DNA of 64,000 bases from Isoetes taiwanensis (taxonomy: Eukaryota > Streptophyta > Lycopodiopsida > Isoetales > Isoetaceae). The position numbers and the translations under genes are program-made. Where the stretch lies: assembly GCA_021234155.1 (NCBI GenBank), contig JAJEKV010000061.1, positions 3,435,950 through 3,499,949 on the forward strand, given 5' to 3'. Below, piece by piece: positions 5,778 through 60,138 of this stretch (positions are counted from its first letter, which is position 1; every line of letters starts with the position of its first letter). The notes beneath the pieces were generated by a model that worked only from the letters and a program-made list of their open reading frames with translations, did not search any database and was not told the DNA's origin.

Positions 5778-6129
5778 ATGCCAATTTCTGATATTCCAGC
5801 ACCTTCCAAGCAAGGATTAATAGATACCTCAGCCATTGAGCTAGGATATCTTGATGTGGCCTTCGTCTCCCCATTTTCAGGGAATGTGGCAACACTTCAT
5901 CAAGTGGCATTCATTTCTGATACTTTGGTGGCATTTATGCAAGGACGCATTCAGGTTCTCACACCTGATCAACTGATTTTTCTGTTTGGATTGCAGAAAC
6001 TTCTAGCACTTAAAGCACTTCCAACAGTTCCAGCACCTGCAGTGCTTACAACACCCCTGTTTCCTGATCATGACGCAGATCTTGACACATCCAATCAAGG
6101 AGGAGATCTTGACTCATCTGATCCATGAG

Positions 6130-7735: not shown

Positions 7736-8920
7736 GGATGCGAAAGCGGCTTGGCGGAAGCGGCTAGGGTAGGCGGCCGCCTCCCATTCTAGCCGCTCTA
7801 AACCATCGGTTTATGGTGCAAGCAGTTGTGATCTGGGTGCTAGCAGGGCTTGGATGTGTTCTGGCTCCTCAAGAAACAGTCATCAGATCTGCTGGTTGAG
7901 TGTAACCTTCCTTCTTTAAGCGACCATAATCGGTTGTTTGGTATTCCACTAGCGTGGCATCTTCCTTTGGTAGATTACAAGCTATGTCATCAAGACACGC
8001 TGAAAGGGTAAGCCAGTTGGGATCTTTGGCCGATAAAGCGAAGATAGATATTTACCACTAACGTGGATTCTTTCTTTTGCTTGCATTCTACTATGTCTAT
8101 TTCATTTGAACCGGTGAAAAGGTAAGCTCAAGATTGAGATCTTGGCCTATAAAGTGAAGGGGATAGAAACTTGGGTTATGTAAAGTAGGTCTTGGATATG
8201 CAAATTCCAGCCCGGGGATATCATACATTGTTTTTGAGGAACAAAACCTTTCATCCGGTTTGCTTCTTTCCTTGCTAGCGAGGAAGCATCGGTTATATGA
8301 CGGGGTTTGTTCAAAGAGGCGGGTGATATTTTCTTCCCTATTGATCTTTGAGCAATCACTCTTTTCTTGTAAGTACCAAGGATCACGAGAATTTAATCGA
8401 CAATGCGGCATTGATTGCTAGGGGCATGATACCTTTGGGAGGTATGGGACTCTTTGGTATGTCGGTTCTCTACGGTTTATGTTAGCTAGGGATTTAAAAT
8501 GTTTCAAGTCTTTGCTATGCTTGAACATTTTTTAGATGGGTGCTGATACCCAATCATATGCTCAAGTACTGATATGCTTGAAGCACTTTAGGCCAGGTTC
8601 TGATGCCTGTGTCAAACTCAAGTACTAATAAGCTTGAGGGCAGCTGGAGGACTGCTATACTTCAGCATGCTGGCTATTATCCTTTGCTTACAGGTTCTAA
8701 AATGGTGGCATAAGTTTTCGAGAAAAGGATTTGTTATCACATTAATTGTACTTTCTCATCGATTCTTTGATGTAGGAGGCTTCTTGAGCATATTATTTAT
8801 CAGGCCGGGGCTTTACTGTGCTTATTCTTCCTATCTGATCTTTTGGAGATCAAATGTTGTAACATCTTTTATATTAATAGAAAACCACCTTGCCTTCAAA
8901 AAAAAAAAAAAAAAAAAAAA
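7736..8920 (+). mobile_element. Poly(A) retroposon inserted in the copia RNase H
   Basis: The 1185-bp insert ends in an uninterrupted run of about 25 A (8898-8922) and is flanked by AAGCAGGTTCAG on both sides (7724-7735 and 8921-8932). That is the signature of target-primed reverse transcription. No RT or other conserved protein is visible, so it may be a 5'-truncated LINE, a non-autonomous partner or a retroposed RNA. Two imperfect internal repeats (about 8008-8055 and 8120-8172, both with GGTAAGC...GATCTTGGCC-ATAAAG) are present. The 3' end has TTAATAGAAA upstream of the tail, a possible polyadenylation region. Confidence 0.88.
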
Positions 8921-35000: not shown

Positions 35001-35884
35001 AGGAGGTGGCTATGATGAACACAAGACCTCCTATGATAAAGTAAGTCTAGCTTTTGAACTTGCGAGATCTATTGGTCATCGCGACCTATTAGAAATCATG
35101 AATCAGACCTTGATTGAAGCCACTCCATAACCGAAAAGATCCCGGTTCAGTCCGGCCGGCCGCGACCTAAAGCGAAGAAAGGAAGAAATGGAAATAAAAA
35201 ACTTCGAAGGATTGGGTTTCAAATCTCGATCAAGAGCGATAAGCAAAAACATGAAAAATCTAGGTCAAAGGATGGCTATGGCGAGGCTATGGGTCGGATT
35301 GGAGCGAGAATGAACTCATTGGAGGCGGATTGGGTTGGTGGAGCGAGAATGAACTTCGATGGAGCGGATTATGGTTACATTCCTTCTTGATGGAAGCGGA
35401 TTGGGTTTCATGGCAACAACTTCCACAAAGGAACAGGGCATCCGAACACGGTCGCGAACAGGCACTTGCCCTAAACGGCAGGAAGAAAAGAAAGAAAAAA
35501 AGTTGGCTATGGCCACCACGAAAGCTTGGTAGATCTCCGGCAGGCAAATACTTTGCTTTTCTAATTTCCCTGACCCTACGATCAGAAAATAAAGAATCGG
35601 ACGACTAAAAAAGAAAATAGCTGATGTGCCAAGACACGTGGCATAGCTCAGAACGCAGGAAAGTGGGCAGGGGGGGTTAGGCAAACCTGCTAAAAATTCT
35701 TTTCTGAAAAAAAAGCTCTTCAATAACAGCCGTAGAAAATTAATTCGTGCATTAATTACTGGTGTCGTGCATTAATTACTGGTGGATATCTTGAAAATCC
35801 GAAAAAAAATTATATTGTTGTGGAAACCCTTCCGGATTTTAGGGAAATTAGGAAGGGTTTCCATTTTTTTTTTTTTTAATAACC
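32007..35884. other. Left internal part of the TIR element
   Basis: A minus-strand open stretch at 33036-32764 with a possible acceptor (TTTGCAG before GCATAGAGC) reads IEQIKEEYGYKACQTWPGW; a + strand open stretch lies at 34769-35044. Neither is recognised. A 21-bp tandem duplication (TCGTGCATTAATTACTGGTG) lies at about 35743-35784. Confidence 0.35.
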
Positions 35885-37450
35885 TGTGACGTCCCCTACT
35901 CGTGTACGGTGCTCTCACCATATACAAACAGGAGTTCTTCCCCCACACCAGCTCCACGCTGATACAGGGCCCTCCACATATCACTGCACCCGTAACGAGT
36001 CCCAGTGGGAAGAGTGAAGGTGTCATTCTACCCTGTCTCCCTCAGGGCCTACCTAGCTGCGGAAGCGTAAACATACATGTCAGTACACAACAGAATCCTC
36101 CATCCACCCAGAAGGGTGGTATATCAACATCTGCATAGACACTGGTCAGCACATCGCATAGGGAATCCTACCCAAGGCTCAGACTCAAGGGAGCGACCGA
36201 CGGCTTGGGCCTCCAGAGTTCATGGCAGACAGAATTCATGGCAATGGAGTTGGCTGGCATGAGAACATGGCATAGGGTTGTCCACTCCATCCGCCCCTCA
36301 CATTGCACACTTTCTGGAGTAGGCTGAAAAAAGTGTCGGGACTGGCCTCAGCCCGCCCGGATCGCGTAGCCGAAGGGGCTACTCACGGGTCTCATCCTCC
36401 CGATTCGATGGGGCGGGAAGGGATCACTCCCCCAGATCTACATCTTTGACTCAAGGTGACTAGAGGACCACGCCCGTGTGACCCCCACCCACCGGAAAGT
36501 GTACACCACTTCCGCGGGTGTGAGCCCATGCCTCACCCGCTTTCGGTGGTGAGCCATTAGACCTAGTCACAATGATCCCCAGTAGGCTTTACACACCGGA
36601 GGGATCGTTCAAGAGTTAGGACATGAACCTCCTTCTTAGCCGGTCACGGCCTTCACCCACAACCGGGTGTGGTTCTTGTACCGCAGGGCGAATCTACGAT
36701 GTGCTAGAGAGGCTACTCTAGGAGCATCAACTACAAGCCTTAGGGCCTCTACCCCCTTCCCAATACAAGGAGTTCACAAAGATACATCATCCATATACAT
36801 CACGGGAAGAACTAAAGAACTAGATCTAATTCTAAATCATAGAGTTAGGTTCTTTAGTTAGTGTCCCAGATCTAAGATCTAGATAGCTACTATGGGCAAT
36901 TTAATAGTCTAAACTTCTTGGTTCTATGACTAGAAGGCGGTTTAAGATATTAAATTGACCAAATACTGATCCCCAGGTGGCTCCTCGACACGAGTTCAAC
37001 CATCTGTGAGCTGATCGAATTCGGGAAACCCGATGGCGCAATTAAACTTGAGGCGTGGGGAGGTGGTTTTGGCTCTGGGGCAGCCAAAACGAGCTCTAAA
37101 ACCCTAAGGACGAAAAACTAGCAAGCTAGGGTTTTCCTACCCTAAATAGACATGGGTTTAGGGCTAGGGTTTCCAATTATCCCTTTTGGCATGTGGGATA
37201 ATTGAAAGGGCCCACTTGCCATTAATGGCTAGGTGGCAAAATGTGTCTACATGGAAAAGTGTGCCCACATTAATGTGCATAAGTGCACATTAATAACATG
37301 TGAACATACCTAGCAAGTTGCCCCTAGGGCTACTTACCTGGCTATCCGTCGGCGTACACGTCGATTGGGTGGAGTGGCGTGTCTGTGCGCTGCGGATTTA
37401 GGCGATGCGATTATCGTTAAGGGACCGTATATCGCGTCTTTGGAACGTCA
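35885..37450 (-). repeat. 3' LTR of the minus-strand chromovirus
   Basis: Aligns end to end with 47552-49122, with scattered substitutions (many C/T or G/A) and a few small indels. Its element-5' end reads TGACGTTCC right after the polypurine tract. The two leading bases of TGTGACG seen at the outer end of the other LTR are AA here. Confidence 0.95.
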
Positions 37451-37462
37451 TTCTCCCCTCAC
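37451..37462 (-). other. Polypurine tract
   Basis: On the minus strand, GTGAGGGGAGAA abuts the 3' LTR. A second purine tract (CCAAGGTGGGGAGA) lies about 40 bases upstream, as in the left chromovirus. Confidence 0.8.
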
Positions 37463-38341
37463 TTGAAATGATGCCGTCCGCGACATGGTGGAGTCTCCCC
37501 ACCTTGGGATCTTCCTAATCGCAATGCGCAATCAGCGTGATGCATACAATATAATAGTTATACATTTACCAAGATTACCCTAAGGTAATATTTTTAAAAC
37601 ATTATCACGTCATCATACTATGGAATACTTATCAATTCATAACATCATTAAACAAGTTATTCGCTATCTCAGTTATTATGACATTAAGTTATACAAAATT
37701 TCAACATTTCATATCTATAATTATTGTTCGAGGTACTCTTCGTTCCTTGCAACACATTCCAAGAAAATTTGTGTTGCAAGTCTTCGTAGCTCGACCTTCT
37801 TGCCCTCCGGAGCGCTCTATTGGCCTGCAGGTCGATACTACGTTAGTACCATTTTAATTATTTAATAAATTTTTGGTTATATGGTGATCACCCCACCTAT
37901 CTACATGGATGCATGGCTAATCTCCCGGCGTAGGAAGAGGATGAATCTTCCATTATGGCCGTGGAGACAACGCCTATATGCCTATATGCCGCTCATGCCT
38001 ACACCCTAGTTGCCCAGCATGGAGGATAGGTCCTTCCCGTATATGGGGCGTGAAGGCCTGATTCCTCCTATCAAAGCATATATGGGGCTAGAGGTGCTTT
38101 TCCTATCAGTGCATTCCTTAATGACCTCCTTCTCTCGAGGTCGTCTACTTAGTGGGGACAGTAGACTTTCTAATCTACCTTCCACTTTCGCCCAAGCCCA
38201 AAACGGTCATGCCTACATTGGCATTACACCACCCTAGAGATCACCGTGGTGGTCCCATCATCGGTAACAACACATGCGACCCATACCAAGCATAGGTGGC
38301 ATCGTGGATTAATCCTAACTACACAAGAATTAACCTACACA
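37463..38341 (-). other. 3' internal noncoding region of the chromovirus
   Basis: Homologous to 299-1135 of the left copy in reverse orientation. No coding potential is seen. Confidence 0.7.
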
Positions 38342-39930
38342 AATCGACATGCCCGAGCCGATTTCTTGGGAGATGACCTTGCCGTCCCATTGCTCCATAA
38401 ACCGGGTATGCTTGTTTTCTAAATCCCTCTTAAGTACCCATGTCGCGTCTTCCAGCGGCAAGTGTTTCCACTTGACCAAATACCGAGGAATTCTGATCTC
38501 CTTGTTTTCTTGAAAGCTTTATCAAGAATCAGTGCGGAACTATTTCCAAACGCTCCTCCGTCATTTCCAACAACGTTGGAGTGTCCAAGACTTCGTGCGG
38601 GTTTGGAGTGTGCTTCTTCAACGAACTCACATGGAAGACCTTATGAATCTTTAGGTGTCTTTGGCAATTCTAACTTGTAGGATTGATTACCTACTCTCTT
38701 AATTATTCTGAAAGGTCCAGCCCACCCTTGGAGCAAGCTTCTTGCAATTCGATCCCGAGCTTTGCACGCTTCACCTTGATCTTGAGCCATACATCATCTC
38801 CAACTTTGAACTCTCCGATTGCTCGATGCTTGTCGTGATGCTCTTTTGTCGACTTCTTGCTGCTAGCGGATACCCTCGAACCTCTTCCACAAGCCGCCGT
38901 GCATATCGGCCAACATCTCGCCGCGAAACTTCCACTTTTGACCGCGGGGTTGTGCCAAGTGTCCGAGTTAGGGCAGCGGTAGCGTAATTGATCATAAATC
39001 GGCGACATTTGGGATGATTCCCGCTTGGTGCTATTGTATGCAAACTCCACCAAGTGAATAAATTCTTCCCACATACTTTGCTTATTCCGGACATAGTTTA
39101 AGTAGCATGTCTTCTAAGATCCTGTTGGTCCGCTCCGTTTGGCCATCCGTCGAGGATGATACGCCGTGCTCATGGATAGCTTGGTCTGAATTGTCGCCAA
39201 AGAGGTCTTGCCAAAATGCACTCATGAACCCGGTCCCTGTCGGGATATAATCTCCCTTGGCATGCCATGAAGCACGAAGATCTCTTTGGTGAAGAGCTTT
39301 TTTTGTATCCATAGTCGTATCGTGGTCTTGCAAGGCACAAAGTGTGCCATCTTCGACAACTTGTCGACCACTACCATCAAGGCATCCTTCCCTCTTACCG
39401 TCCTTGGGAGCCCCAGTGATGAAATCCATCTTTGATCACCTCCCACTTAGCGTTTTTGGCACCGCTAGTGGCTCTAATGCCCACGGAATTGAAGCTGCTC
39501 CGCCTTTCGTCTGGCTGGCATAGCCGACATTCCTTGATGTAGCGAAGCTACTTGCTTCTTCATTCATTCCTGGCCAATAATAGCTGCGCGCTTTGAAATA
39601 TGTTTTCATGAATCCCGCGATGGCCAGCTATTGTCTTTGTTAGCGTGTCATGGAGGATCAACTTCCTTACACCTGATGATTCGGTGCGCACAACTTGTTC
39701 TTATGGTATAACAGGTTGCCTTCCTTCTTATAATGCTTGAAGGCCTCCCCGCTCTTTATCTGTTCTAGCCTCCTTAGAGAGGCTTGCCCATACTTCCACT
39801 TTGAAATCCACACCCGTTGGCAAGGACTCTTCAATCTTCTTACCAAAGTCATTTGGAGGCGTCGAAATTGCATTGCAATGCACTCTAGTTGTCGGGGATG
39901 TCTTGAAAGCGCATCTGCTACCACATTGAG
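38342..39930 (-). pseudogene. Chromovirus integrase and chromodomain, broken
   Basis: Reading downward: VVADALSRHPRQ at the RNase H/integrase junction (39924), then KDALMVVVDKLSKMAHFVPCK, the integrase core start, followed by SSSTDGQTERTNRILEDML with the third acidic region (39150-39100). Next come FIHLVEFAYNSTKRESSQMSPI and IGEFKVGDDVWLKI of the C-terminal domain. Chromodomain remains (LILDKAFKKTRRSEFL and a WKHL-like piece) lie at 38560-38440. At least five frameshifts separate these blocks. Integrase would join the cDNA to host DNA, and the chromodomain would read histone H3 marks. Confidence 0.88.
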
Positions 39931-41754
39931 CTTCCCCGCTTGTAGACTATAACAAAGTCATATTCTTGAGGAACTCCATCCACCTCCCTGCCTCGAGGTT
40001 AAGGTGTGGTTGCGTGAATACATCTTGGGAGGCTCGATGGTCGGTATCAATTGGAACTTCCTTCCCAAGAGGTAGTGCCTCCATATTCTTAACATACGAC
40101 AACCGCAAGCAATTCACGATGCGTCGCGTTGGGTAGCGTCTCGGCGTCGTTCATCTTCACGGAATCATATGCTACCGCGGCTCTTCTTGCATAAGCCTTT
40201 TTTTTGTAGCTATCTTACTCGCATCTGTTGCTACAAGCTTATCCTTCTCCGGGTCCGGCAGGGTCAAGACAGGGGCTGTCGTCAAAGCTTCCTTCAACAA
40301 TTCAAACCCCTTTTGGGCTGTCTTGTGCCAATGCTCTGCCCAATCTTTCACCTTCTCTGCCCTCGTCAAATCTGTTAACGGGGCCGCTATCTTAGCAAAG
40401 TTCTTCACGAACTTCCTATAGTACCCTGCTAACCCGAGAAAACTTCTGACCTCGTGCACATTCTTGGCGCCGACCCTTTGAATCCTTTGCTTCAATCTTG
40501 GCGGGGTCCGTCGAGATGCCTTCTGCTGAGATCACGTGACCCAGGTATTCTACCTTCTCCGTTGCGAAGTGGCACTTCGACAACTTGGCGTACAACTGGT
40601 GCCTCTTCAACTTCTCTAGCACTCTCCTTAAGTGTTGTACGTGCTCTTCAAGGGATCTGCTATACACCAAAATGTCGTCAAAGAATACAATCACAAAGGT
40701 GTCTAAAAACTCCCTGAAGATGTCGTTCATGAGCCTCATGAGCGTCGGCGAGGGGCATTCGATAAGCGAAAGGCATTACCGTGAACTCATAGTGCCCATA
40801 CAGCGTTACGGCGGTCTTATGGATATCTTCCTCCTTTATCCGGATCTGATGATAACCTGACCTTAAGTCGATTTTGGAGAAGATCCTTGCTCCTTGAAGC
40901 TGATCCATCAAGTCGTCTGATCTTGGGAGCGCATACTTGTTCTTAATGGTGTGCTTATTCAACTGCCTATAGTCTATGCACATCCTCAAGGATCCATCCT
41001 TCTTCTTGACAAAAAGAATGGGTGCTCCAAACGGCGAGACGCTAGGCCTAATGAATCCTAGGTCGAGTAGCTCCTGCAATTGCTTCTTTAGCTCTGACAA
41101 CTCCTGCGTTGTCATTCTATACGGAGCCTTGCTTGTTGGCTTTGTTCCCGGTTCGAGTGCTATCTCGCACTCGACTCCCCTATAAGGAGGGAGCTGCTTG
41201 ATCTCATCTGGAAAGAGATCATGGAACTCCGTGATCAGCTTAGCTATTTGCTTCGGCAACTTGCTGAGAACCTTGTCTTCTTTGCTTTCTTCTGATTCCT
41301 GCTCACTGATCTCAAGCTTGAAGATGTATGCCACCCGCTCACTCTTGATGCACTTGAACAGCTGTTTAGAAGACATACACTGCATGACGGGAACAACTTC
41401 TTTACCTGTGATCTCAATGATCTTGCCGTCGGGCGTTGGGAAGGTCACCTTCCGCTTTCCACAATCGATAATGGCCCTTGCTGGTCCAAGGTACTCCATA
41501 CCTATGATCAAGTCGTACTTGCCAATACCCATTACTTCTGCCCCCATGTGGATTTTAATCCCTGGCAAGTCGATGTCGAAGTTGATTCTCTTACCTGCCG
41601 TCTGCCTTACTGCTCCACTTGCTAAGACAACGGGCCTTGGCTTTGACTTTAGTGGTTCCAACTTCAACATTTGAACCATTCTGGGGGATGCAAAGTTATG
41701 GCTACTTCCCGAATCTATCAGGACTATAAATGACTTGGCCTTGGCCTTTCCCAC
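39931..41754 (-). pseudogene. Chromovirus protease, reverse transcriptase and RNase H, broken
   Basis: From 41754 a long frame starts with the aspartic protease motif [13 protein letters not shown] and continues through [11 protein letters not shown]. It then enters RT with [53 protein letters not shown] and [15 protein letters not shown]. After a frameshift near 40740 the RT active site appears as [12 protein letters not shown], followed by [17 protein letters not shown]. RNase H begins at 40495 with [19 protein letters not shown] and keeps LVATDAS. The protease Asp and the RT DD pair are preserved. RNase H past 40170 is too broken to follow. Confidence 0.92.
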
Positions 41755-42299
41755 TGTGGAAATTACCTTATACTGGCTCTCTTGCTTTGCTCAGATCTAT
41801 TGCGGCAAAGATATGACACTCACCACTGAATGTAGTCGCGGCCCTCCTCATAGATGTCATTCGTGGGTCAGTCCCAATCTCCCAACTCGCGCTAGTATTT
41901 TGCACTCATAGCGTATGGGCGGGTTCGACGTCCTATGGCTTTGGTGGAAGCACACGAAACAAAGGCTGCTTTTCTATGCACTCCTGTCTCTTTTTCCTTG
42001 GGCATGGCCTGCAAAAGGATCATTGCCTTGGAGTGGTTTGACCCCTCACCGCTTGTCCTTGAAGGACACACGCTTCTTCTCCTGCTTTGTTTCCCCTAGT
42101 TGCCACTATATGGGGGCTCTAGGCGGACACGGATTTGGTTCCTGGGACTATAGCTTCCTGTCGCCTTGCCTTTATCCTGGAAATACTGTTGCCTCTGCCC
42201 GCTATTATGAGGTCCTGTTCCTTGCAAGCTTATAGCCTTGGATTCTGCTTCGATCTTTGTCTTAGGGTTTATTGCCCTTCTGAGGCTTCGCAGTTCCCT

Positions 42300-43185
42300 C
42301 ATTCACCCCTCAATATAGCTTTCTACTGCATGCTTCTCACCCAATTTTGGCACATACAGCCTCAGCCTCATGAATTCCTCTGTATATTTCTGGACTGATT
42401 TGTTTCCCTGTTGGAGCCTATAAAACTGCTGCATCATGCTGGACTTATGTTCCCTCGGGACGTAATGGCGCTTGAAGGCTTTAGCGAACTTCCTGAACTT
42501 ACAAGCATCCCTGCTTAAGCCATGTGCCTTTGCATACCCCTTCCACCAAATCCGTGCGGCTCCCTTCAAGTTGGCTGTTGCCACTCTTCCTTTGTCTTTA
42601 TCCTTCATGCCATAAGCATTGCCGTACTCACTCATCTCGTCCAGCCATGCCTCCGCTTCTAATCCTGACCTGTTCTCCCCCGAGAACTGTTCCAGTTTCC
42701 GGGCCTTCCATACATTGCCTAGTGCGGAATCTACCTTCTTCTGGTAGTCAGAGGCCCTGGTGTTCCTTTGTCGTCCATCTGGGGTGTTTCTCTGCCTTCC
42801 CTCTTCAGTGCTCCTTTGCCTTCCATCACGTTTGGGTCTGGGCCTGCTCTTCCTCTTCCTCGAGTCGAGTCGAAATCGAGCTTGAGCCGAGGAATCCGAA
42901 GGGATCTCCTTCTCTTGCTCCTCTTCTTGTCCCTTCCCGTTTTCCGAGCTGATGCTTGTGGCAATTGAGCATTGCCCACCGAACCTGCTCCTGCTTGTGC
43001 GGCTAATAGAGCCTTTATCTGTTCAAGGTCCGTCCTCATCTGGGATATCTCCTCCTCTGGGGTCATGGGTTCCATTTCTTCGAATAAGTTCCTTGCTGGG
43101 GGTGGTCTGGGCGGGGTCTGTTCTTCCCTAAGGTCCTGGCGTTGTCGCTCGCCTGGGCCTAGGCCTCTAACTGCATACACAAGTA
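42300..43185 (-). pseudogene. Chromovirus gag, broken
   Basis: Begins just after an acceptor-like TATGCAG near 43184, so gag may be reached by splicing, with no ATG at that point. The first part is acidic/basic (MTPEEEISQMRTDLEQIKALL). After a frameshift the capsid-type block of plant gypsy gags follows: RVATANLKGAARIWWKG, KFAKAFKRHYVPRE, MMQQFYRLQQGNKSVQKYTEEF (42600-42350). A zinc knuckle should lie at about 42100-41850, but only a CF..H trace is seen. Confidence 0.8.
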
Positions 43186-43354
43186 ATTCATGGTTATATG
43201 GTTAGTTTTACTTGTTCTCTTGCATTATTTATGTTTGTTGGTATGGTTGGGGATACAAAATATATCAACAAAACATTTATAGAGCAAAAGAAATTATATT
43301 CATATCTTATAATATGTTAATACAAAATTACACTTCCGTGGATCGAGATCGCTA

Positions 43355-44900
43355 ATCATTCCTCACGTGCCGGTAAAGATGGATTATCCTCTAGGAACTT
43401 TTTCACTTGGGCTGTTCCCACTGAATGGCCCAAGTTCCTAAGGACATTGGCTGAAGATCCACCCTGTAAAGCTCTCGCCAAGTCTTCTATTCAAGGGTCG
43501 AGGTATAAGCCGGCCGCCACCACCGGTCTTTGCCCCGCCGCCTGTAAGGTATGGCGAAGTCGAAGACGTCGAGTGCTACCGCTCTCTTCACCAGGATGGC
43601 ATACTCGGTGTTGAGGGGCAACCGCGCATGCCGGCCGAATCCTGAGAGTGCAATCAGCATCGATACTCCTTCTTCGCCTCAGGGGTGAACTTGCGGTGAA
43701 TTACCGCTAATCTACCATCCATCGGCAGGGGAGGTAATATCGCAACACATTGTTTGCGAGGCGGATCTTCCCGCCACTCGGTATCCAGCTCGTGTGCGCT
43801 TTGCGGTCATCAACCCTCCACCGTGGTGAGCTCCCCGTAGTCTCTGACGGCTTTCTGAAGCCCTCCCGAGGTCATCAACCTCTCCCCCGGGAGGTGCTGC
43901 GGAAGAGCTTGCCGTTAGGATGTTTGAGGTCGCGTAGCGGATCCCCATCTGTTCCTGTAAAGCAAGAAACTCTTCCTCCGTCGGTAGCTTGTTCTCGGCC
44001 TTGTCTCGCCTCCATAATCCGCTCGATGCTGCTTTGGAGGGCTTGGATGTCGGAGGTAGACTCTCCCCGCAGTGTCGGTCTCCCCTTACTTGGAGGGGGG
44101 AAGTCGAGATGCTCCTGGACGATGAAGTCGCCTAAGTCCGTTCTTCTTGGTGCAAAGAACTCTTCGGTCGGTACTCCCTTTCCCTCGCACTCCGGAGGTT
44201 TTGGATGTCGCTTAGGAGCGTAAACTCCGCGACCTTCTCGACAATAATGGGAGCTAGGCTTGTGATGCCTAACCCAAGGGGTGGCGTGACTCGAGAGTTT
44301 GCCCGGCTTCTTTTCGAGTCTTGCCACTCTTGCTCGCTTGTCGCCGCTTCCTCCGTTGGGTCGAGGCTTCGACATAGTCTTCCTCTTCTTCCGATTCACG
44401 CTCATGGTCTTCTTCCTTCCCTTCCCCCTCCCCCGTTCATCTTTTGTGTGAGGAGCCGTTGTTCTCTTTGCTATGGCTAATGGGTCTATGTCCAAGGGGG
44501 GAATGGAGGTTTCCCCCACGGTGTTCTCGGCACGGTGGGTGAGAAAGATTGCCAAGGCAGTGTTGAAAGAGAAGTACTTGGTCCTATTGACAGTTAGGAC
44601 CATTGGCTCAGGTGTGCGCTGCGCTTTGTTTGTTAGGTATTTGGCGATGTTCGGGACGTCGTCTAATGCTGCTTGCAGGGATTGTCTAGGGACAAAGTAG
44701 CCTATGCAAGGGGGGAGCTGTACTAGCGCTGGTTCTACCCTAGCTTGGAACTCAGACAAGACTCTACTGTAAGCTGGGGTTGCGTGCAAGGTTGCCTGGA
44801 CATCTACCTCCTTCCTGAAGATGTGGAAGATTTGGTCGACGTCGACCTCGGCAGCATGAGCGCTGACGCTGTACCATCTGCGAAATTCAGAGGTTGCCAT
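43355..44900 (-). CDS. Chromovirus accessory gene 2, basic protein of unknown function
   Basis: The ATG at 44900 (in ACCAATGG) opens a 341-codon frame; after frameshifts the same protein probably continues to about 43355. The first ~150 residues look globular (VDVDQIFHIFRKEVDVQA, QLPPCIGYFVPRQSLQAAL, TVNRTKYFSFNTALAIFL). A very basic, probably nuclear-targeting, segment follows (GRGKGRKKTMSVNRKKRK) and then a Pro/charged part. Reading frames near 43650 give LANNVLRYYLP and NTEYAILVKRAVALDVFDFA, and near 43430 RALQGGSSANVLRNLGHSVG. I recognise no domain, and it does not resemble gag, envelope or histones H4, H2A or H2B. It lies between the H3-like gene and gag in the sense direction and has its own TATA box and hairpin pair. 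Confidence 0.6.
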
Positions 44901-45012
44901 TGGTTAATTGCAGAAGAGGGTAACAAACGGTTGCAAGAGCGCCTCAGGGAGTTGAGAAATCGGCTAGAAGGGCAGGAGCGGATTTGTAGGGTGCTATCTG
45001 AGAAATGAGGGG

Positions 45013-45023
45013 TTTATTTATAG
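45013..45023 (-). promoter_or_regulatory. TATA box of accessory gene 2
   Basis: CTATAAATAAA on the minus strand, 113 bases before the ATG at 44900. The leader that follows shares AACCCC, CTCATTT, CTC and AAATCCGCTC, in the same order, with the leader of accessory gene 1, so the two promoters look like duplicates. Confidence 0.65.
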
Positions 45024-45210
45024 AAAAGGGGAAAACCCTAATTTTTGGGTGACTTGGGAAATTCCTGGGGTTGGGTAATTCTAGTCTGTCTAAGGTAAAA
45101 ATGGCAATTTGAAGACTAAATGAGATGTTTGAACAGGGCTAAATTACCTCAAGGATACTATCCAACAGGTTGAAGATGATTTGGACACGTTCTGGTGAAG
45201 AAATGGTAAG

Positions 45211-45478
45211 AGGTCTCACAGCTTGCGCCTCGCTCCAAAACTAACTTTTAGTTCTTTGACCAGGCGCGAGCTGTGAGACATCAGCCTCATTTCGATCAAA
45301 AGGTGTCTAATTTGGGTAACTAATGGTGTAAGGATGATGGGCTCATCAAATCAGACAGAATTGACCCCTTATTTGGTCGATTTGGAGCTGTTTTGGTCAA
45401 GTTTGGGCGAGGTCTCACAGCTTGCGCCTCGCTTCAAAACTAAAATTTAGTTTTGCGACCAGGCGCGAGCTGTGAGAC
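45211..45478. promoter_or_regulatory. Hairpin pair upstream of accessory gene 2
   Basis: Two ~68-bp palindromes at 45213-45279 and 45411-45478, starting 200 bp apart. Arms: GTCTCACAGCTTGCGCCTCGC and GCGCGAGCTGTGAGAC (after GACCAG), with an inner palindrome AAAACTAAAATTTAGTTTT at the tip. They lie between the stop of accessory gene 1 and the TATA box of accessory gene 2. Confidence 0.9.
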
Positions 45479-45626
45479 ATCACGTTTTTCGGTCTGCAAA
45501 TGTCCTATTTCACTGCAATAAAAGCTAAAACTTACTAACTTGCACTAGTTAATCCAGCTCATGCAGTTAATGTACCCAAAATTGCTTTATATTACAAAAT
45601 TTTCAATTATTTACAAAAAAAAGGTT

Positions 45627-46880
45627 CTAAGGGCGTTCTCCCTTTATGCGGGTCGCAAGACTCATGTCCTGTCGCATGAGGGTTACCCGCTTGGCGTGAA
45701 TAGTGCAAGCTGTTGAATCTTCGAAGTGTTGCACTATTTTTGCTTCTGCCGCTTCCTGCATTGCCGCCAGCCTCGTCAAAGGACCACGAAGTCCGCCGTT
45801 CTATAGGCCTGCATTACTTCTCGAACTAATCGAGCAAAGGGGCCTGCAGGGGATTAGAAGGCCGTAGGCTGCTTGTTTGGAAGTGATCTCCCTTAAGCTC
45901 TCCTCTCCACCTCCTTCATCAATCTTCTTCTTGGGTGGCGGCTTGGGAACTTTGGGCTTTGGGGGTGGCGGCTTTAAGGTCTGTTGCTTCGTTGGTCGCC
46001 CTCCCTCGATGATCCTAACTCTGTTTTCTTCATAGTACTTGCTGTAGGCTTCCCATTTCTTCATATAGGCTTCGTGCTCCCTCATCTTTCTTTCGTATAT
46101 CTTTACTCTGTCAGTGACGTAGGCTTCCCGGGCAGGTCGTGGTTGCTTCTTTCTATCCCATCCCGATTTTCGGGGGTTTCTGCACTTGATCTTCTTTGGA
46201 GTTGCTTTCGAGTCTTGGCTGGTCGTCGGGCACTACGTTAAATTACCGGGGTGCTTAGAAGAGCTTCCACCTGCGCAAACATTAGGGTTGAAGTCCTCAT
46301 CGGAAGAGTCGTCGGGAGGGGTTCGGAGGTTCGATGGCTTGCCGCTCCTTGATGATGATCTTGGGGTTAGGCCTCTTTTCGGGGGCAGTCCTTCAGCTTC
46401 CTTGTGCTATCCACGAACTTCCCCTTCGCCTTCTTTTTCTCTTCTGCTGCTTTCTGTTCCTCTTCCTCCCTTTTCCTCTTTTTGTCTTCCTTCCTCTTCT
46501 CCCGGCGTTCATATTTCCTAATGAACCTTCTAAGGTCTGCTTCTTCTGGCGGCTCCGGACCTCACACTCTTCTTCTGCTTTCGAGGATCTCGGTGGCTGC
46601 CCGGAATGGTCTTCTGCTCTTTCATGCTCCCGGATCTCCCGCTCTATTTCTTCATATACCTCCCTTGTCTCCTCGTCCATGGAGGTTGGTGATGTTGCCT
46701 CGTCCTGCTCCACCTGCTGGTTGAAGACGTCGATCAGATCGGACGTGTCCTGCTCTTCGTCCGTGAGCGACCCCCCCCCTTTAGCCTCTCGCGAAGCATC
46801 TGTCGAATGATCTCAGCCTCCGTGGCGCTGGTGGTTTCGCCTGGGCGACGCTTCCTGGCGGTCTGTTTGGTTCGGGCCAT
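45627..46880 (-). CDS. Chromovirus accessory gene 1: histone H3 homologue with a long linker (frameshifted)
   Basis: The ATG at 46880 (in AGCATGGCC) encodes [10 protein letters not shown], the histone H3 tail through Lys9, so both the K4 (ARTK) and K9 (QTARK) methylation contexts are present. The frame continues with [12 protein letters not shown] to a run of nine G (46779-46771), where it shifts. A long acidic, coiled-coil linker follows ([52 protein letters not shown]), then Pro/Lys-rich [16 protein letters not shown]. From 45899 to the TAG at 45627 an H3 histone fold can be read in three frames: SLREI and LLI (alpha-N), [11 protein letters not shown] (alpha-1), [10 protein letters not shown] and [16 protein letters not shown] (alpha-2, loop 2), then RIKGERP. 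Canonical H3 has LREI, RLVREI, QEAAEA, CAIHAKRVTIM and RIRGERA. The span is ~417 codons against 136 for H3. The start fits because of the tail, the TATA box 100 bases upstream and Met-Ala processing. CENH3 is less likely, since its tail differs and loop 1 here is not extended. This copy is not functional as it stands. Confidence 0.85.
46771..46779. other. G9 run at the first frameshift of the H3-like gene
   Basis: Nine G on the minus strand. Nine force the frame into an early stop, whereas ten would continue into [13 protein letters not shown] lost base, an assembly error or slippage are all possible. Confidence 0.7.
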
Positions 46881-46980
46881 GCTTTTCGGATCGTCAATCG
46901 GGTAAAAGCGCCCAAAGATCGCCTAAGTGGGGAAGAGCGGATTTCTAGGGCTGGGACGAGAAAATGAGGGGGGGTTTACA

Positions 46981-46991
46981 TCTATTTATAG
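46981..46991 (-). promoter_or_regulatory. TATA box of the H3-like gene
   Basis: CTATAAATAGA on the minus strand, 100 bases before the ATG at 46880 and preceded by TTTCCCAAG, which also lies upstream of the TATA box of accessory gene 2. Confidence 0.68.
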
Positions 46992-47092
46992 CTTGGGAAA
47001 TTTTTAGGTCAAAGTTCGAGTTGCTCTATTTAACATGCTAAGGCACCTACTTAGTTAAAATTTACACTTATTTCAGACTTTTTCTAGCTATT

Positions 47093-47347
47093 GGTCTCAC
47101 AGCTTGCGCCTCGCTTCAAAACTAAAGTTTAGTTTTTAGACCAGGCGCGAGCTGTGAGATCTCGTAGATTGCTAGGTTATTTAGGTAATTAAAACATGCT
47201 ATTCTAATTAATTCCTACTTAGAACTAGCCTTACCACATTACTTTTCTCAAATTCATCATGTTTTGGTGTTTTTGGCTCGATTTCTCCACGACTTAGCCT
47301 CGCTCAAAAACTAAAATTTAGTTTCTGCGACCGGTAAAATGCGGAGA
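47093..47347. promoter_or_regulatory. Hairpin pair upstream of the H3-like gene
   Basis: A ~68-bp palindrome at 47093-47160 is nearly identical to the two upstream of accessory gene 2. A more worn copy lies at 47284-47347 (TCTCC-CGACTTAGCCTCGC, inner AAACTAAAATTTAGTTT), about 190 bp away. Confidence 0.85.
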
Positions 47348-47535
47348 CCCACCTCACTTGGAAAAATTTGGGCTTATTCTTTTTAATCTTATCAAATTCC
47401 AATTAAACTTAATTGTTGCTAGCTTAGCATAACTACAAAAATGAGAAAAATTTTCCCACTTTTCGAGGCTTGAGGATCCTATCAAGTCGATTATTCTTCG
47501 GAACATGGCGGTGCTTTGCTCTTGGTCTCCAAGAA

Positions 47536-47550
47536 CATTGCTCGATACCA
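47536..47550 (-). other. Primer-binding site, initiator Met tRNA (variant)
   Basis: On the minus strand TGGTATCGAGCAATG follows the LTR after one base. Compared with the usual TGGTATCAGAGC, one A is missing. Confidence 0.8.
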
Positions 47551-47551
47551 T

Positions 47552-49122
47552 TGTGGCGTCCCCTACTGTGGTAATGCGGTGCTCTCACCGTATACAAACA
47601 GGAGTTCTTCCCCCACACCAGCTCCACGCTGATACAGGGCCCTCCACATATCACTGCACCCGTAACGAGTCCCAGTGGGAAGAGTGAAGGTGTCATTCTA
47701 CCCCGCCTCCCTCGGGGCCCTACCTAGTCGGGCGTAAACATACATGTCGAGACACAACAGAATCCTCCATCCACCCGGAAGGGTGGTATATCAACATCTG
47801 CATAGACACCGGTTAGCACATCACATAGGGAATCCTACCCAAGGCTCAGACTCAAGGGAGTGACCGACGGCTTGGGCCTCCAGAGTTCATGGCAGACAGA
47901 ATTCATGGCAATGGAGTTGGCTGGCATGAGAACATGGCATAGGGTTGTCCACTCCATCCGCCCCTCCACATTGCACACTTTGCGGGAGTAGGCTGAAAAG
48001 TGTCGGGGACGATTAGCCCGCCCGGATCGTGGCGAAGGGGCTACTCACGGTCTCATCCTCCCAGTTCCGATGGGGCGGCGGAAGGGATCACTCCCCCGTG
48101 AGATCTACATGCCGACTCAAGGTGACTAGAGGGGGCCACTGCCCGTATTCGACTGAACCCACTGGAAAGTGTACACCACTTCACGGGTGTCGAGCCCATG
48201 CCTCACCCGCACTCAGTGGTGAGCCATTAGACCTAGTCACAATGATCCCTGGTAGGCTTTACACACCAGAGGGATCGTTCAAGAGTTAGGACATGAACCT
48301 CCTTCTTAGCCAGTCTGGCCCCTTCACCCACAACCAGGTGTGGTTCTTGTACACAAGCCGAATCTACAGTGTGCTAGAGAGGCTACTCTAGGAGCATCAA
48401 CTACAAGCCTTAGGGCCTCTACCCCCCTTCCCAATACAAGGAGTTCACAAAGATACATCATCCATATACATCACAGAAGAACTAAAGAACTAGATCTAAT
48501 TCTAAATCATAGAGTTAGGTTCTTTAGTTAGTGTCCGAGATCTAAGATCTAGATAGCTACTATGGGCAATTTAATAGTCTAAACTTACTGGTTCTATGAC
48601 TAGAAGACGGTTTAAGCTATTAAATTGACCAAATACCTGATCCCTGGGTGGCTCCACCTGACCTGAGTTCAACCATCTGTGCCGAGCTGATCAATCCGGA
48701 ACCCCGATGGCGCCAATTAAGCTAAGGCGTCGGGAGGTGGTTTTGGCTCCTGGGGCAGCCAAAACAGAGCTCTAAAACCCTAAGGACGAAAAACTAGCAA
48801 GCTAGGGTTTTCCTACCCTAAATAGACATGGGTTTAGGGCTAGGGTTTCCAATTATCCCTTTTTGGCATGTGGGATAATTGGAAAGGGCCCACTTGCCAT
48901 TAATGGCTAGGTGGCAAAATGTGTCTACATGGAAAAGTGTGCCCACATTAATGTGCATAAGTGCACATTAATAACATGTGAACATACCTAGCAAGTTGCC
49001 CCTAGGGCTACTTACCTGGCTATCCGTCGGCGTACACGTCGGTCGGAGTGGCGTGTACGCGTGACGATTTAGGCGATGCGATTATCGTTCGGGACCGTTA
49101 TCTTTGTCTTTGGAACGTCACA
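47552..49122 (-). repeat. 5' LTR of the minus-strand chromovirus
   Basis: 1571 bp, starting TGTGACGTTCC at 49122 and ending GCCACA at 47552. Paired with 35885-37450. Confidence 0.95.
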
Positions 49123-50034
49123 TAACCCCATCGGGGGGAGATAGTGTAAGCGATAGTCTAGCGTATTTATCTAAATGCCCTTGCTTCACATGGACTTCAA
49201 CAACAATACTTGTAGTTCTAACAAACAGCCAAACCCGATGTCTAACAAAGCAACACCCGATAGTAGAAGTCCAAGTTTTTGCAAATTTACGAAAGCGTTA
49301 AATTGAAGGTTGATTTTCCTTCCAATAGTGGCAAGATAGATTGCAGTTTTTGACCCAAAGCTTTGCCATAACATTGACCCCCAAAACAAGAAAAATAAAA
49401 ATAACTAGCAGAACTGCAGGGTTGGGAAGGAGGCTAGGCAGATGGGTGTGTGTTGGTATTTTAATTGTAGTAATTTGAATTTCAGCCCATGGGAAAGCAC
49501 CCTAAGTGGTCGTCATGCATTTCTATCGTTTATAGTGCTATATTGTGCAAATGGGTTGGATTTGCAAATCCAAAATTCTATCATCTAAAATGCTATATTG
49601 TGCAAATGGGTTGGAATTGCAAATCCAAAAGTTTATCTTTTACTTTCTTCGATGCATACCTACAATACTGATGATTATATTCGTTCATGTAATCAAAACT
49701 TCAATGCCAAGGGATCATGATGAAAGCAAAAGCACTAAGGGAACATTATTAAAAGCAAGCACTAATTAGTACTAGAACTTAAGGCTTGGTAATAGTGTTG
49801 AAGATAACATTAGGATTTAATAATAGAGCTTAAAGTTTGGTATAGTAGCTGAGACGATTGTCATGTCTGCATACACAAAGAAATTCCATTAAAGAAAACA
49901 TACATAGGCACATTTTTCAGCAAAGATTCAAAACATATTCTCATCAAGCAGTGTTAAGCTTATATAAAGCTACATTTTCATTAAGTAAACTGTAAGCTTA
50001 TAAGCTTAATTGTAGCACTCTTTACATAAGGAAA

Positions 50035-56945: not shown

Positions 56946-59900
56946 TCAGTTTTCTGTGTGGCCTCTCACTCGTGCGCGAGGTCGTGGTGGTTGGTCCCTC
57001 GCTACGGTCGGCCCTGCACGCCATCTGTGGACTCCACTGCGGGCATGTTCTTGCTGTCTGTCGTAACCGCCATGAAAGACGTGAACCAGGGGGCCGGCTG
57101 CGTCTCTATAGAATCGGATCTGCCTGCGAACCTTGGATATAATTTCACGCACATCTTCTGGGTCAAGAGCATGAGCATTTTGCATAGTGGCTTGCACAGT
57201 CTGGTGTTCGGCCATGAGCAACGCATCCCATTGTTGTAGCAGCGGCATCAGGACATCGACGTCGTTCCGCGGGTGCGGGTATCGGTGAGGCATGGGCGGA
57301 ATGAATTGTCGGTTGGGAAATAGCTCATTAATGCGGGGTGGCTGCTGGTAAGGAAATAGTCTCCCGCTATGAGATGTTTGCACACAGCATGAGGGCATGG
57401 GCAATCGCAATATCGCATCCTCATATGCTGAGTGTATCTCAATCCCTCCGTTGACTGGCTAGCCATAGATAACCTGACGTCTGCAGCATCTTCCAACCGG
57501 ATGGCGTTGGGGTTATCGTGCATGGATTGGATAATGGAGTGAGCACCTGCATGTCTCTTTGGATATGAGCGTGTGCTATAGCGTCCAAACTCGGCTGCAT
57601 GGAAAAAGAGAGGTTAGGGCCAGCAAGCAGACAAAAGGACCGTTCACACGAGAGAGTTACACCCGTGTGTACTTACCAAGACTCCATCTTTCTTCGCACC
57701 GAGTGAGGATTGTGCCTCCAGCCGGCATGGTCCCATCCGGAAAGCCAATGAGATGAGACACTAGTGTGTACATCCTTATATTAACTTTGCACTGCAAGGT
57801 TTGGGTCTTCAAAACTTTCCAGTGTGATTCCACATAGTTTGTTGTGTCGACGTTAGCATGGTTGAACATCCGTTTGTGTCTCTGCCATTTACCATCCCAC
57901 GTCGCCCCATTCAACCAGTTGTGATTCAAGTACCTACATCGCGCAACACTTTGTTTGGCCCAGAGTCAGGATGAAACAACTAATTTACGTTGTGCACTCA
58001 CCCTTGTATGATGTGGTTTTGTCCGTAGAGAAGTTGAAATTGTGCCAGCTGGACATTGCAGGCGTTGGCGTTTGGCTCTGTCATCAACTTTGACAGCTGC
58101 AAAGCCACGTCTCTCTTTAGCACCTCCCCGGCCAAGCGTGGCAACAGATATTTTGCCACGCACGCTTCGCATGGAACCAACATGCAAGAACATTGCCTGC
58201 AACCTGTTTGCAAAACCACAACTATCGTTTCCAATGTGTTGATACAATCAATGCACGCTCAACATACCTGCTCGCCATCTTCCCAACAATGTGGGTCTTC
58301 TGACACAACCTCGGTGATAGCCCGTCTCTCACAGCCGTCCATGTCAATGGTGATTGACCTGGGCCTGATTGTGCCCATTCGCTCGAAGACAAGACGTAGT
58401 GCTATCTTCAGGGCATGTCGTTGGTGCCCCTCGTCGGCCTCTACGCTGCAGAGCATGTAAAACACTGGGTACCCCACACCCCCGGCAATCGGGACAATGG
58501 CTCCGTACAACGGAAACTTCCACAGATTTGTGCAGAAGGTTGAATCCATGGCCCAACCACCACCGCCGCTCCACCTTACAGCAGCCTCCAACATCTTGTC
58601 ATCTTGGATGACTAGGATCCATGGCCGGGCCAACGGGTCTGCAGCATTAGGATTCCAGGGCTGGTGGAAAATCACCTTCCCGGCGGCTTTCCAATCGTCT
58701 ATCCCGCTCTCAAGGCTTTCCCAGTCCGTACCCAAACTCCCGCCTACGAGGTGCAATGTGGTGAGATTGAATGATAAAATATTTACGGTGACAATTTCAT
58801 TGAAACAATAGTTTGGACCAAGGGTAAGCATATCCAGAATGACAAAGTTGAGTGAGAACTCCAAGTTAATTACTGTTCCAAAAACTAAGCATTCTCTGGA
58901 ATCTACAACAACATCACTGTTCCATAGTAAAAGAATTTTCAGTGGAGCTTACCGAGTATTCTCTGCCGGTAGGCCAATTGCCACACATCCTCCTGCGCCA
59001 TCGTGAAGCGGTATGTGACTCTCTCAACTGGGCTTACTGTCATACGTATTTGTGGTCCCCGTGCTCTTGCGACGTCCCACGCAGCACGGGTCATTCCAAT
59101 ACTTCTAAGCTCCAGTGCGACAGCCGCAAGCAGTTCAGGATGCACGGGCATGGACCAATCCTCCGCATTGGTGAAAGGATCATGGCCAGTGTATTCTGTG
59201 CTAACGTATATCCGTGCACCATTTCCATTATCTTTCACTGTCCGCAAACGAAACAAGCATCCTCTACGGTGGGACCGTCTGATTTGCCTATCCCCCCGGG
59301 TCCCTCTCCTGCGTGGTTGCCTCCATCGGTGGCAGGCATAGTCATCCACAATCTCACCCGTTGCAACCCTGACACGTTGATGCCCATGGACCAAACGGAC
59401 ACGATGAGTGGTTTGAAGCTCAATCACCCTTTGCTCGAGGCGGTCCACAGTGGTCTCCTCAGAGTAGTTGAAGTCGCTGTCCTTCATGGTGCGACCACTT
59501 TTGCACGTGCACACTTCCATGCATGCAGTTATGTATTCCTGTGGGATGCCATGGCGCCGCAGACCGATTTCCCATTCCTCTGAAATCTTTTCAAACGTGG
59601 CAGTGGGATGGGTGCTTCCATTCAAGTGGCCCAAAGCAACTAGCTGGCTCCAAAACTCCACGTAAGGGACTAACTTATGAGGCCCGGTTACGCGCCGGTA
59701 CAACCAACCGCTGGAGTCATCGTCAACTGCAAACTCCTCACAATATGCAGCCCATCGGTACATCAACCGGACATGGTGCTCGATGGGTGGCCTCCCGCTT
59801 CTCTGCGAAACCGGGGGCAAGCGAGGATCAGCAGCACTTATTTCGGACGGGTGGGGAACATAGTATTGCTGTAGGCACAGCCTCATCAACCCATACACAG

Positions 59901-60138
59901 ACTCGTTGAGGGCATAACCACCCTGAGGAGCAACACGGAGCCATTGAACTGGGTTCGGGTAGAGACCGGCCAGTTCATGTACAAGCAGTTCTTGGGAATC
60001 TTAGGTGGGAGTAACTTGTGGAGCAACCTGACCAGGCGGGTTCCACCCATCGCCTGCATTTTCCCCGGTGTCCTCCTCTGACATTGTGTCATCCTCGGTG
60101 TCATGAAGGTCATACTCACTATCATTTTCATCTGACAT
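56946..60138 (-). pseudogene. Mutator-like transposase with SWIM zinc finger, broken
   Basis: The ATG at 60138 starts an acidic N-terminus (MSDENDSEYDLHDTEDD). A TAA at 60003 interrupts the frame, which then runs on to 58939 with LVHELAGLYPNPVQWLRVAP, WRQPRRRGTRG and GCLFRLRTVKDNGNGARIYVS...GHDPF, the Cys/His DNA-binding region. After an intron the catalytic core follows at 58864-58259: GGWAMDSTFCTNLWKFPLYG (first Asp), VFYMLCSVEADEGHQ, ITIDMDGCERRAI (second Asp). C-terminal blocks: VAKYLLPRLAGEV, NHNWLNGATWDGKWQRHKRM, NYVESHWKVLKTQTLQ, and the SWIM motif YCDCPCPHAVCKHL (~57400). It would cut and join the TIRs. One premature stop and at least one frameshift are present. Confidence 0.85.

What the first reader, a model, noticed from the sequence alone, without database searches (positions are those of the whole stretch)
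45627..46880. A retrotransposon-encoded histone H3 homologue
Seen: the first ten residues are [10 protein letters not shown], identical to the H3 tail. At the other end of the same gene-length stretch [25 protein letters not shown] and RIKGERP occur in the order and spacing of the H3 fold. The gene sits between the primer-binding site and gag of a chromovirus with a TAACC target duplication, in the sense orientation. Known: chromodomains of chromoviruses read methylated H3, and histone tails are mimicked by some viral and host proteins. Inference: the element family acquired an H3 gene and inserted a ~300-residue charged linker between tail and fold. It could mark, decoy or package element chromatin, or provide the ligand for its own integrase chromodomain. 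I know of no described LTR retrotransposon with its own H3.
Basis: partly seen in the sequence, partly recalled or inferred. Interest (0 to 1): 0.97.

Follow-up and report, generated by a model that had tools for sequence, protein, structure and literature searches.

The report
Histone H3 gene inside a retrotransposon
A decayed plant-type LTR retrotransposon in this stretch carries its own gene for a histone H3-like protein (an H3 tail tip, a long charged linker and an H3 core); the gene seems to have been readable when the element landed here, but only this one broken copy could be examined.

Summary
On the minus strand of 45627-46880 lies a broken gene that starts [10 protein letters not shown] and ends in an H3 histone fold. 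Its last 48 codons alone hit H3 in the PDB at E 3.3e-13 and Pfam Histone at 1.5e-11. It sits in sense between the primer-binding site and gag of a 13.2-kb chromovirus with a TAACC target duplication. A frame model trained on gag and protease-RT scores the gene and its ~300-codon linker as coding and four non-coding controls as not; training on ORF B alone is much weaker. Its breaks per kb resemble gag-pol and do not clearly exceed what the LTRs predict since insertion, so it was probably open when this copy landed. It shares a promoter-like cassette with a second leader ORF. The core is H3-like and fast-evolving; H3 versus CENH3 origin is unresolved. No second copy, host genome or expression could be examined. 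Function is inferred. Precedents are a hAT-transposon H3 and single viral H3s; I found no LTR retrotransposon with one. New variant of a known kind.

The parts
35880..35884 (+). target-site duplication TAACC, left
   Evidence: read
49123..49127 (+). target-site duplication TAACC, right
   Evidence: read
35885..37450 (-). 3' LTR
   Evidence: 91.6% identical to the other LTR; K80 0.082
47552..49122 (-). 5' LTR
47540..47551 (-). primer-binding site, initiator-Met-tRNA-like (the match to the plant tRNA is recalled, one base short)
   Evidence: sequence
47270..47360 (-). diverged palindrome (fourth copy)
   Evidence: z -2.5; 3 of 200 shuffles fold as well
47091..47164 (-). 74-nt palindrome upstream of the H3-like gene
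   Evidence: z -7.1
46983..46991 (-). TATA-like box CTATAAATA about 110 nt before the H3-like start codon
45627..46880 (-). H3-like gene: tail tip, charged linker, H3 fold; broken by frameshifts and stops
46851..46880 (-). codons 1-10, [10 protein letters not shown] (start Met plus H3 residues 1-9)
45627..45899 (-). H3 fold region, pieces in two frames
45409..45482 (-). palindrome upstream of ORF B
   Evidence: z -10.7
45210..45283 (-). palindrome upstream of ORF B
   Evidence: z -7.0
45015..45023 (-). TATA-like box CTATAAATA about 120 nt before the ORF B start codon
43878..44900 (-). ORF B, 341 codons open from its ATG, further pieces to about 43359 by eye; no known family
42306..43022 (-). 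gag (capsid part)
   Evidence: Pfam Retrotrans_gag 8.3e-17
40681..41790 (-). protease and first half of reverse transcriptase
   Evidence: Pfam RVP_2 3.2e-9, RVT_1 3.4e-12
40175..40775 (-). second part of reverse transcriptase and RNase H, overlapping pieces in two frames
   Evidence: RVT_1 3.7e-16; RT_RNaseH_2 7e-11
38706..39627 (-). integrase pieces (named by eye; of the four pieces given to Pfam only one matched, zinc-binding H2C2, E 0.016)
38333..38518 (-). chromodomain
   Evidence: Pfam Chromo 3.8e-8

Best explanation
This is a decayed copy of a plant-type chromovirus that carried, in its leader, a stand-alone gene for a histone H3-derived protein: the start Met and H3 residues 1-9, about 300 charged linker residues, and an H3 histone fold. 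Shown: the homology, the position, a codon signal like that of gag and protease-RT, and break density like gag-pol. Inferred: the gene was intact when this copy inserted, was kept by the element under selection, and was transcribed from its own TATA promoter. Most likely mechanism (about 0.35 on its own, inferred): the protein pairs with host H4, forms the H3-H3 bundle, and enters chromatin as an unusual H3. There the long linker and an H3 tail tip with S10 changed to R would alter how new or unintegrated element copies are silenced or sited.
For: H3 homology: PDB E 3.3e-13 from 48 aa; Pfam 1.5e-11; 95-aa fold versus an H3.1 chain E 4.1e-21. Coding: with the frame model trained on gag and protease-RT alone, the H3-like gene scores z 4.0-4.8 and its linker z 4.6-5.6, 0 of 100 shuffles reaching either at each of three settings; the leader, ORF B spacer, 5' LTR and 3' spacer score z -0.45 to -1.84 (first version). 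Decay: 4.0-5.6 breaks per kb in the gene against 3.9-6.1 in gag-pol with that training, 4.0 against 4.3. LTR divergence predicts 6.8 frameshifting indels per kb per copy since insertion (21 of 28 indel events, 1543 aligned bases), plus 1.2-2.1 new stops per kb in the four correctly framed pieces. Own cassette: palindromes 93 and 96% identical (62 and 64 of 67) and a 55-nt stretch between TATA and ATG 75% identical (E 4e-4) to those of ORF B, both with CTATAAATA. Fold: 8 of 8 recalled H3-H3 bundle residues kept, against 41 of 82 other positions, p 0.007 (the list was chosen after seeing the sequence).
Against: One copy only. ORF length alone does not show the gene or linker to be coding: 46 of 300 shuffles have an ORF as long, and the antisense strand has a longer open stretch (172 codons against 143). 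Break counts per kb are less extreme against shuffles in the gene (3, 4 and 7 of 100 at or below) and linker (7, 8 and 11) than in gag-pol (0). A model trained on 241 ORF B codons gives the gene z 1.8-1.9 (3 to 5 of 100 shuffles), the linker z 1.1-1.4 (9 to 15 of 100), breaks of 4.8-8.8 per kb, and the non-coding 3' spacer up to z 1.4. The chaperone site 87-90 is changed at 3 of 4 positions, and five of 12 recalled DNA contacts (52, 53, 56, 63, 64) are changed, about the rate elsewhere; both speak against ordinary nucleosome assembly. No relative of the linker was seen: the one protein found (1 of 618 candidates at E 0.01 or better) matches over 45% of the query stretch, about the length of the fold; nothing in viral contigs.
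Confidence: 0.6

Rival explanations
1. Passenger: a host H3 mRNA or gene piece was captured once by this element or a few copies (transduction) and never did anything for it.
For: Gene capture by plant LTR elements is well documented (PMC13317346, passages). Only one copy was seen and no relative found. The fold is far from H3 (48 of 90 identical to H3.1), and part of that distance could come from a divergent source gene.
Against: Inference: a passenger that drifted this far while neutral should have lost its frame long before; yet breaks are about as dense as in gag-pol and within what the LTRs allow. It has a promoter-like cassette shared with ORF B. The recalled H3-H3 bundle residues are kept.
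Confidence: 0.2
2. Tail mimic or tether: the protein is not a nucleosomal histone. Its H3 tail tip attracts or titrates readers and writers of H3K4/K9, and the fold or linker docks the element's particle or integrase on chromatin.
For: The tail is identical only over Met plus 9 residues (K4, R8, K9 kept; S10 changed). Two linker pieces are 22 and 24% K+R. The chaperone site and N-terminal DNA contacts have changed. The element has a chromodomain.
Against: The recalled H3-H3 bundle residues are all kept, which a mere mimic would not need. The chromodomain lacks Y48 in the part read.
Confidence: 0.2
3. A centromeric H3 (CENH3) was captured, to guide the element to centromeres.
For: Motifs LLIPxxPF and VTLMRxD resemble plant CENH3 (the Arabidopsis sequence is recalled). 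Loop 1 seems one residue longer, but a frame break lies in it. The AU test does not reject a group with two plant CENH3s, p 0.43.
Against: Identity is higher to H3.1 (48 of 90) than to Arabidopsis CENH3 (41 of 92, recalled) or Typha CENH3 (44 of 94). The tail tip is canonical H3. The smallest well-supported set in the tree joins the element with two unnamed H3 variants with H3-like tails, P0002 and P0003 (97/83), apart from the CENH3s, and from H3.1/H3.3 too; its branch is very long.
Confidence: 0.1
4. Nested insertion: the H3-like gene and ORF B belong to another mobile unit that landed in the leader of the chromovirus; the palindromes are its ends.
For: Palindromes lie on both sides of the H3-like gene.
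Against: Both genes run in the element's sense, decay is similar to gag-pol, and the palindromes lie in pairs upstream of each gene with a TATA box, not as one outer pair.
Confidence: 0.08

Closest known systems
H3L gene of a hAT DNA transposon in Pyrenophora tritici-repentis (PMC3538342, passages read)
   Same: A mobile element carries a divergent H3-like gene plus an ORF of unknown function; insertions in the tail; neither H3 nor CenH3 completely; 26 H3L genes, with ESTs.
   Different: A DNA transposon in a fungus, not an LTR retrotransposon; the passages do not say how long its tail insertions are.
Single H3 genes of DNA viruses, and bracovirus H4 (PMC9145170, passages read)
   Same: One histone taken from a host by a selfish element; some have longer N-terminal tails (53 and 68 residues added).
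   Different: Those six H3s are in DNA viruses with 73-87% identity to a possible host's H3 in the fold; here about 53% to H3.1. The review's text has 0 occurrences of 'retrotransposon' or 'retrovirus'.
Ty3/Gypsy elements with an m6A-demethylase ORF in Phalaenopsis (PMC9289625, passages and section 12)
   Same: A plant Ty3/Gypsy element with an extra ORF akin to a host regulatory gene.
   Different: A different enzyme and lineage. No histone domain is among the extra domains named in section 12; the full chart is in a supplement that I did not see.
Plant chromoviruses with CHD_II chromodomains (PMC3350952, passages)
   Same: Gag, protease, RT, RNase H and a C-terminal chromodomain lacking Y48.
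   Different: Here the leader is about 4 kb and holds two added genes.

Membership tests
histone H3 | H3 histone fold by sequence | tested here: met
   E 3.3e-13 from 48 aa; Pfam above its cut-off, 45 against 26.4 bits; read-through fold E 4.1e-21
histone H3 | canonical N-terminal tail through residue 37 | tested here: not met
   only Met plus residues 1-9 match, then a linker
histone H3 | assembles into nucleosomes | not testable with these tools
   recalled bundle residues kept, chaperone site and N-terminal DNA contacts changed
CENH3 | groups with CENH3 rather than H3 | tested here: inconclusive
   tree places it apart from both, with P0002 and P0003; AU test p 0.43 with plant CENH3, 0.37 with H3.1/H3.3
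chromovirus (Ty3/Gypsy LTR retrotransposon) | LTRs, target duplication, primer-binding site | tested here: met
   tRNA match of the primer-binding site recalled
chromovirus (Ty3/Gypsy LTR retrotransposon) | gag, protease, RT, RNase H in Ty3 order | tested here: met
chromovirus (Ty3/Gypsy LTR retrotransposon) | chromodomain at the end of integrase | tested here: met
   Pfam Chromo 3.8e-8; the integrase core itself by eye only
chromovirus (Ty3/Gypsy LTR retrotransposon) | place in an RT tree among named chromovirus clades | not tested
   no reference elements were fetched
element-encoded histone (stable cargo, as in the hAT H3L family) | present in many copies of the element family | not tested
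   The genome search gave no answer in 10 tries; no relative in 3 viral-contig scans
element-encoded histone (stable cargo, as in the hAT H3L family) | open when the element inserted | tested here: met
   indirect: break density against gag-pol and LTR divergence

The most novel reading that the evidence does not exclude
A lineage of LTR retrotransposons makes its own long-linkered histone H3, from its own promoter, and uses it to build or mark chromatin on its copies: a retroelement that brings part of its own nucleosome to escape or steer silencing and integration.
Probability: 0.3. Interest if true: 0.92.

Novelty: new variant of a known kind. Interest (0 to 1): 0.72.

Why it matters
Plants silence retrotransposons largely through DNA methylation and marks on histone H3 (established knowledge, recalled). 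An element that encodes its own H3 variant would attack or exploit that system at its substrate, and would make it directly testable whether selfish DNA can alter the nucleosome itself. It would also extend histone theft from DNA viruses and a DNA transposon to retroelements.

Tried and rejected
Looked for other copies: the genome search on the window's own genome was unanswered all ten times. Viral-contig scans with one linker piece, ORF B and protease-RT found nothing (0 confirmed of 4, 25 and 9 pattern matches). Protein search with ORF B: 0 of 1995 candidates at E 0.01. Long H3-like proteins: one hit, P0001, 299 aa, 36% over 45% of the query stretch, with a serine/arginine-rich front half.

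ORF length as proof of coding for the linker: rejected (46 of 300 shuffles as long); replaced by the frame model. In one search the stop estimate for one linker piece (linkF2, 10.1 per kb) came from coordinates two bases off frame and is not used. AlphaFold on the first 153 residues of ORF B: mean pLDDT 42, so no fold search was made. ORF B as a paralogue of the linker: no likeness (one linker piece only). No Rfam match at gathering score and no tRNA in the window. No NCBIfam match to the H3 or ORF B pieces. Host species: not identified; 'plant-type' rests on the primer-binding site and chromodomain class and is partly recalled. PMC6554479 looked relevant by its terms, but the passages shown concern host CENH3 genes.

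Full report
What is there. The window holds a 13.2-kb LTR retrotransposon on the minus strand, 35885-49122. The two LTRs align at 91.6%. Reading the ends gives TGTGACGT...ACGTCACA and TAACC on both sides; the 3' LTR lacks the first TG. A primer-binding site that resembles the plant initiator-Met type (recalled, one base short) follows the 5' LTR. Pfam finds gag (8.3e-17), protease (3.2e-9), RT (3.4e-12 and 3.7e-16), RNase H (7e-11) and a chromodomain (3.8e-8), in Ty3 order. Integrase pieces are visible by eye; of the four given to Pfam one gave a weak zinc-binding match (E 0.016). The element is a chromovirus by structure; I built no RT tree.

The H3-like gene. From 46880 downwards the translation begins [10 protein letters not shown] (Met plus H3 residues 1-9) and then leaves H3. 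After about 300 codons of charged sequence the H3 fold follows: LREI...LLIPCRP in the first frame, [17 protein letters not shown] in a second, and QEAAEA...IKGERP back in the first. The final 48 codons alone are decisive: E 3.3e-13 to PDB H3.3 and 1.5e-11 to Pfam Histone. The middle piece by itself is weak (E 0.05). The read-through 95-aa fold matches an H3.1 chain over residues 3-94, E 4.1e-21. In the six-frame motif scan QTARK, EAAEA, HAKRV and IKGER occur only here; ARTK and LVRE[IV] each occur once elsewhere, alone.

Was it a gene when the element moved? Open-frame length does not answer this: 46 of 300 shuffles of the gene have an ORF as long, and the antisense strand has a longer one. 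I therefore scored frames with codon usage learned from the element's own gag and protease-RT. The H3-like gene scores z 4.0-4.8 and its linker z 4.6-5.6 (0 of 100 shuffles reach them, three settings). ORF B, not in that training set, scores z 4.4-5.0. The four non-coding stretches score below zero. Against this, training on 241 codons of ORF B alone gives much weaker values: gene z 1.8-1.9 (3 to 5 of 100 shuffles), linker z 1.1-1.4 (9 to 15 of 100), with the non-coding 3' spacer at z 0.1-1.4. The first version, trained on all three genes, gave z 3.8 for the gene and 4.1 for the linker (0 of 200 shuffles each) and 4.0 breaks per kb in the gene, against 3.3 in ORF B, 4.3 in gag-pol and 11-15 in non-coding stretches; gag-pol and ORF B are partly their own training there. 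With gag and protease-RT training the gene has 4.0-5.6 and gag-pol 3.9-6.1 breaks per kb; with ORF B training 4.8-8.8 and 4.7-10.8. The path does not see the two frame changes inside the fold; adding them brings that count to 7 in 1.25 kb, about 5.6 per kb. The LTRs differ by K80 0.082 and 21 frameshifting indels in 1543 aligned bases, so each copy should have gained about 6.8 frameshifts per kb since insertion, plus 1.2-2.1 stops per kb (one mis-framed piece dropped). The observed breaks fit decay after insertion. Most of the distance from H3 is then older than this copy and arose while the frame was kept, in the element or in the source gene.

Own regulation. Upstream of the H3-like gene and of ORF B lie copies of a 74-nt palindrome (three of four fold with z -7.0 to -10.7; the fourth has z -2.5, 3 of 200 shuffles folding as well). 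The well-kept copy before the H3-like gene is 96 and 93% identical over 67 nt to the two before ORF B. After them come CTATAAATA, about 110 and 120 nt before the two ATGs, and a 55-nt stretch that is 75% identical between the two (E 4e-4). The two genes look like two transcription units of one build. That the TATA boxes work is inference.

What kind of H3. By identity it is nearer canonical H3 (48 of 90 to H3.1; 49 of 90 in the hand alignment) than CENH3 (41 of 92 Arabidopsis, recalled; 44 of 94 Typha); the highest is an unnamed H3 variant with an H3-like tail, P0002 (54 of 92). In the tree the smallest well-supported set that holds it is with P0002 and P0003 (97/83), apart from H3.1/H3.3 and from the CENH3s, on a branch of 2.2 changes per site; AU tests separate nothing (p 0.43 with plant CENH3, 0.37 with H3.1/H3.3, 0.44 with these plus P0002 and P0003). 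The recalled H3-H3 bundle residues are all kept (8 of 8, against 41 of 82 elsewhere), while 5 of 12 recalled DNA contacts are changed, about the rate elsewhere (all five lie between positions 52 and 64), and the chaperone site 87-90 is changed at 3 of 4 positions. The lists were set after seeing the sequence. This fits a protein that still tetramerises but sits oddly on DNA, and leaves open whether host chaperones would load it.

How it may work. I favour entry into chromatin with host H4 (about 0.35), then a tail mimic or tether. Plant CHD_II are reported to lack Y24 and usually Y48, and little is known of what they bind (PMC3350952, passages).

What is known. Transposon-borne H3 is in print: a hAT element in Pyrenophora with 26 H3L genes (PMC3538342, passages). 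Viruses with single H3s, some with longer tails, are reviewed in PMC9145170 (passages). Plant Ty3 elements with an m6A demethylase akin to a host enzyme are in PMC9289625 (passages and section 12). A 2026 review of gene capture by plant elements has 0 occurrences of 'histone' in its text (PMC13317346, passages). My paper searches (also on CENH3) showed, in the titles and abstract starts listed, no LTR retrotransposon with an H3 gene; two searches listed nothing, one search showed 12 of 29 and 12 of 17. I opened six papers. Most subscription papers are not in that library.

Limits. One broken copy; no host name; no second copy; no expression. The claim 'an element family with its own H3' is an inference from one copy's codon signal and decay.

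Noticed in passing
43359-44900 (-): ORF B: a second leader gene of the element, 341 codons open from its ATG, no Pfam or NCBIfam family in the pieces tried, no homologue among 1995 candidates at E 0.01; scored as coding by a gag and protease-RT model.
   Followed up: partly
45210-45283, 45409-45482, 47091-47164, 47270-47360: Four long palindromes in pairs upstream of the two leader genes; the fourth has diverged in both arms yet still pairs moderately (z -2.5).
   Followed up: partly
5064-7789 (+): Remnant of a Ty1/copia element (Pfam Retrotran_gag_2 1.5e-18, RVT_2 3.8e-77).
   Followed up: no
58262-60000 (-): Two ORFs, one with a weak MULE transposase match (E 1.3e-4, below the curated cut-off).
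   Followed up: no
P0001 (protein): A 299-aa protein (source jgi, 1059-base contig) with a serine/arginine-rich N-terminal half and a C-terminal H3 fold.
   Followed up: no
P0002 and P0003 (proteins): Unnamed H3 variants with an H3-like tail start and [11 protein letters not shown] in the fold, the two closest to the element's fold by identity.
   Followed up: partly
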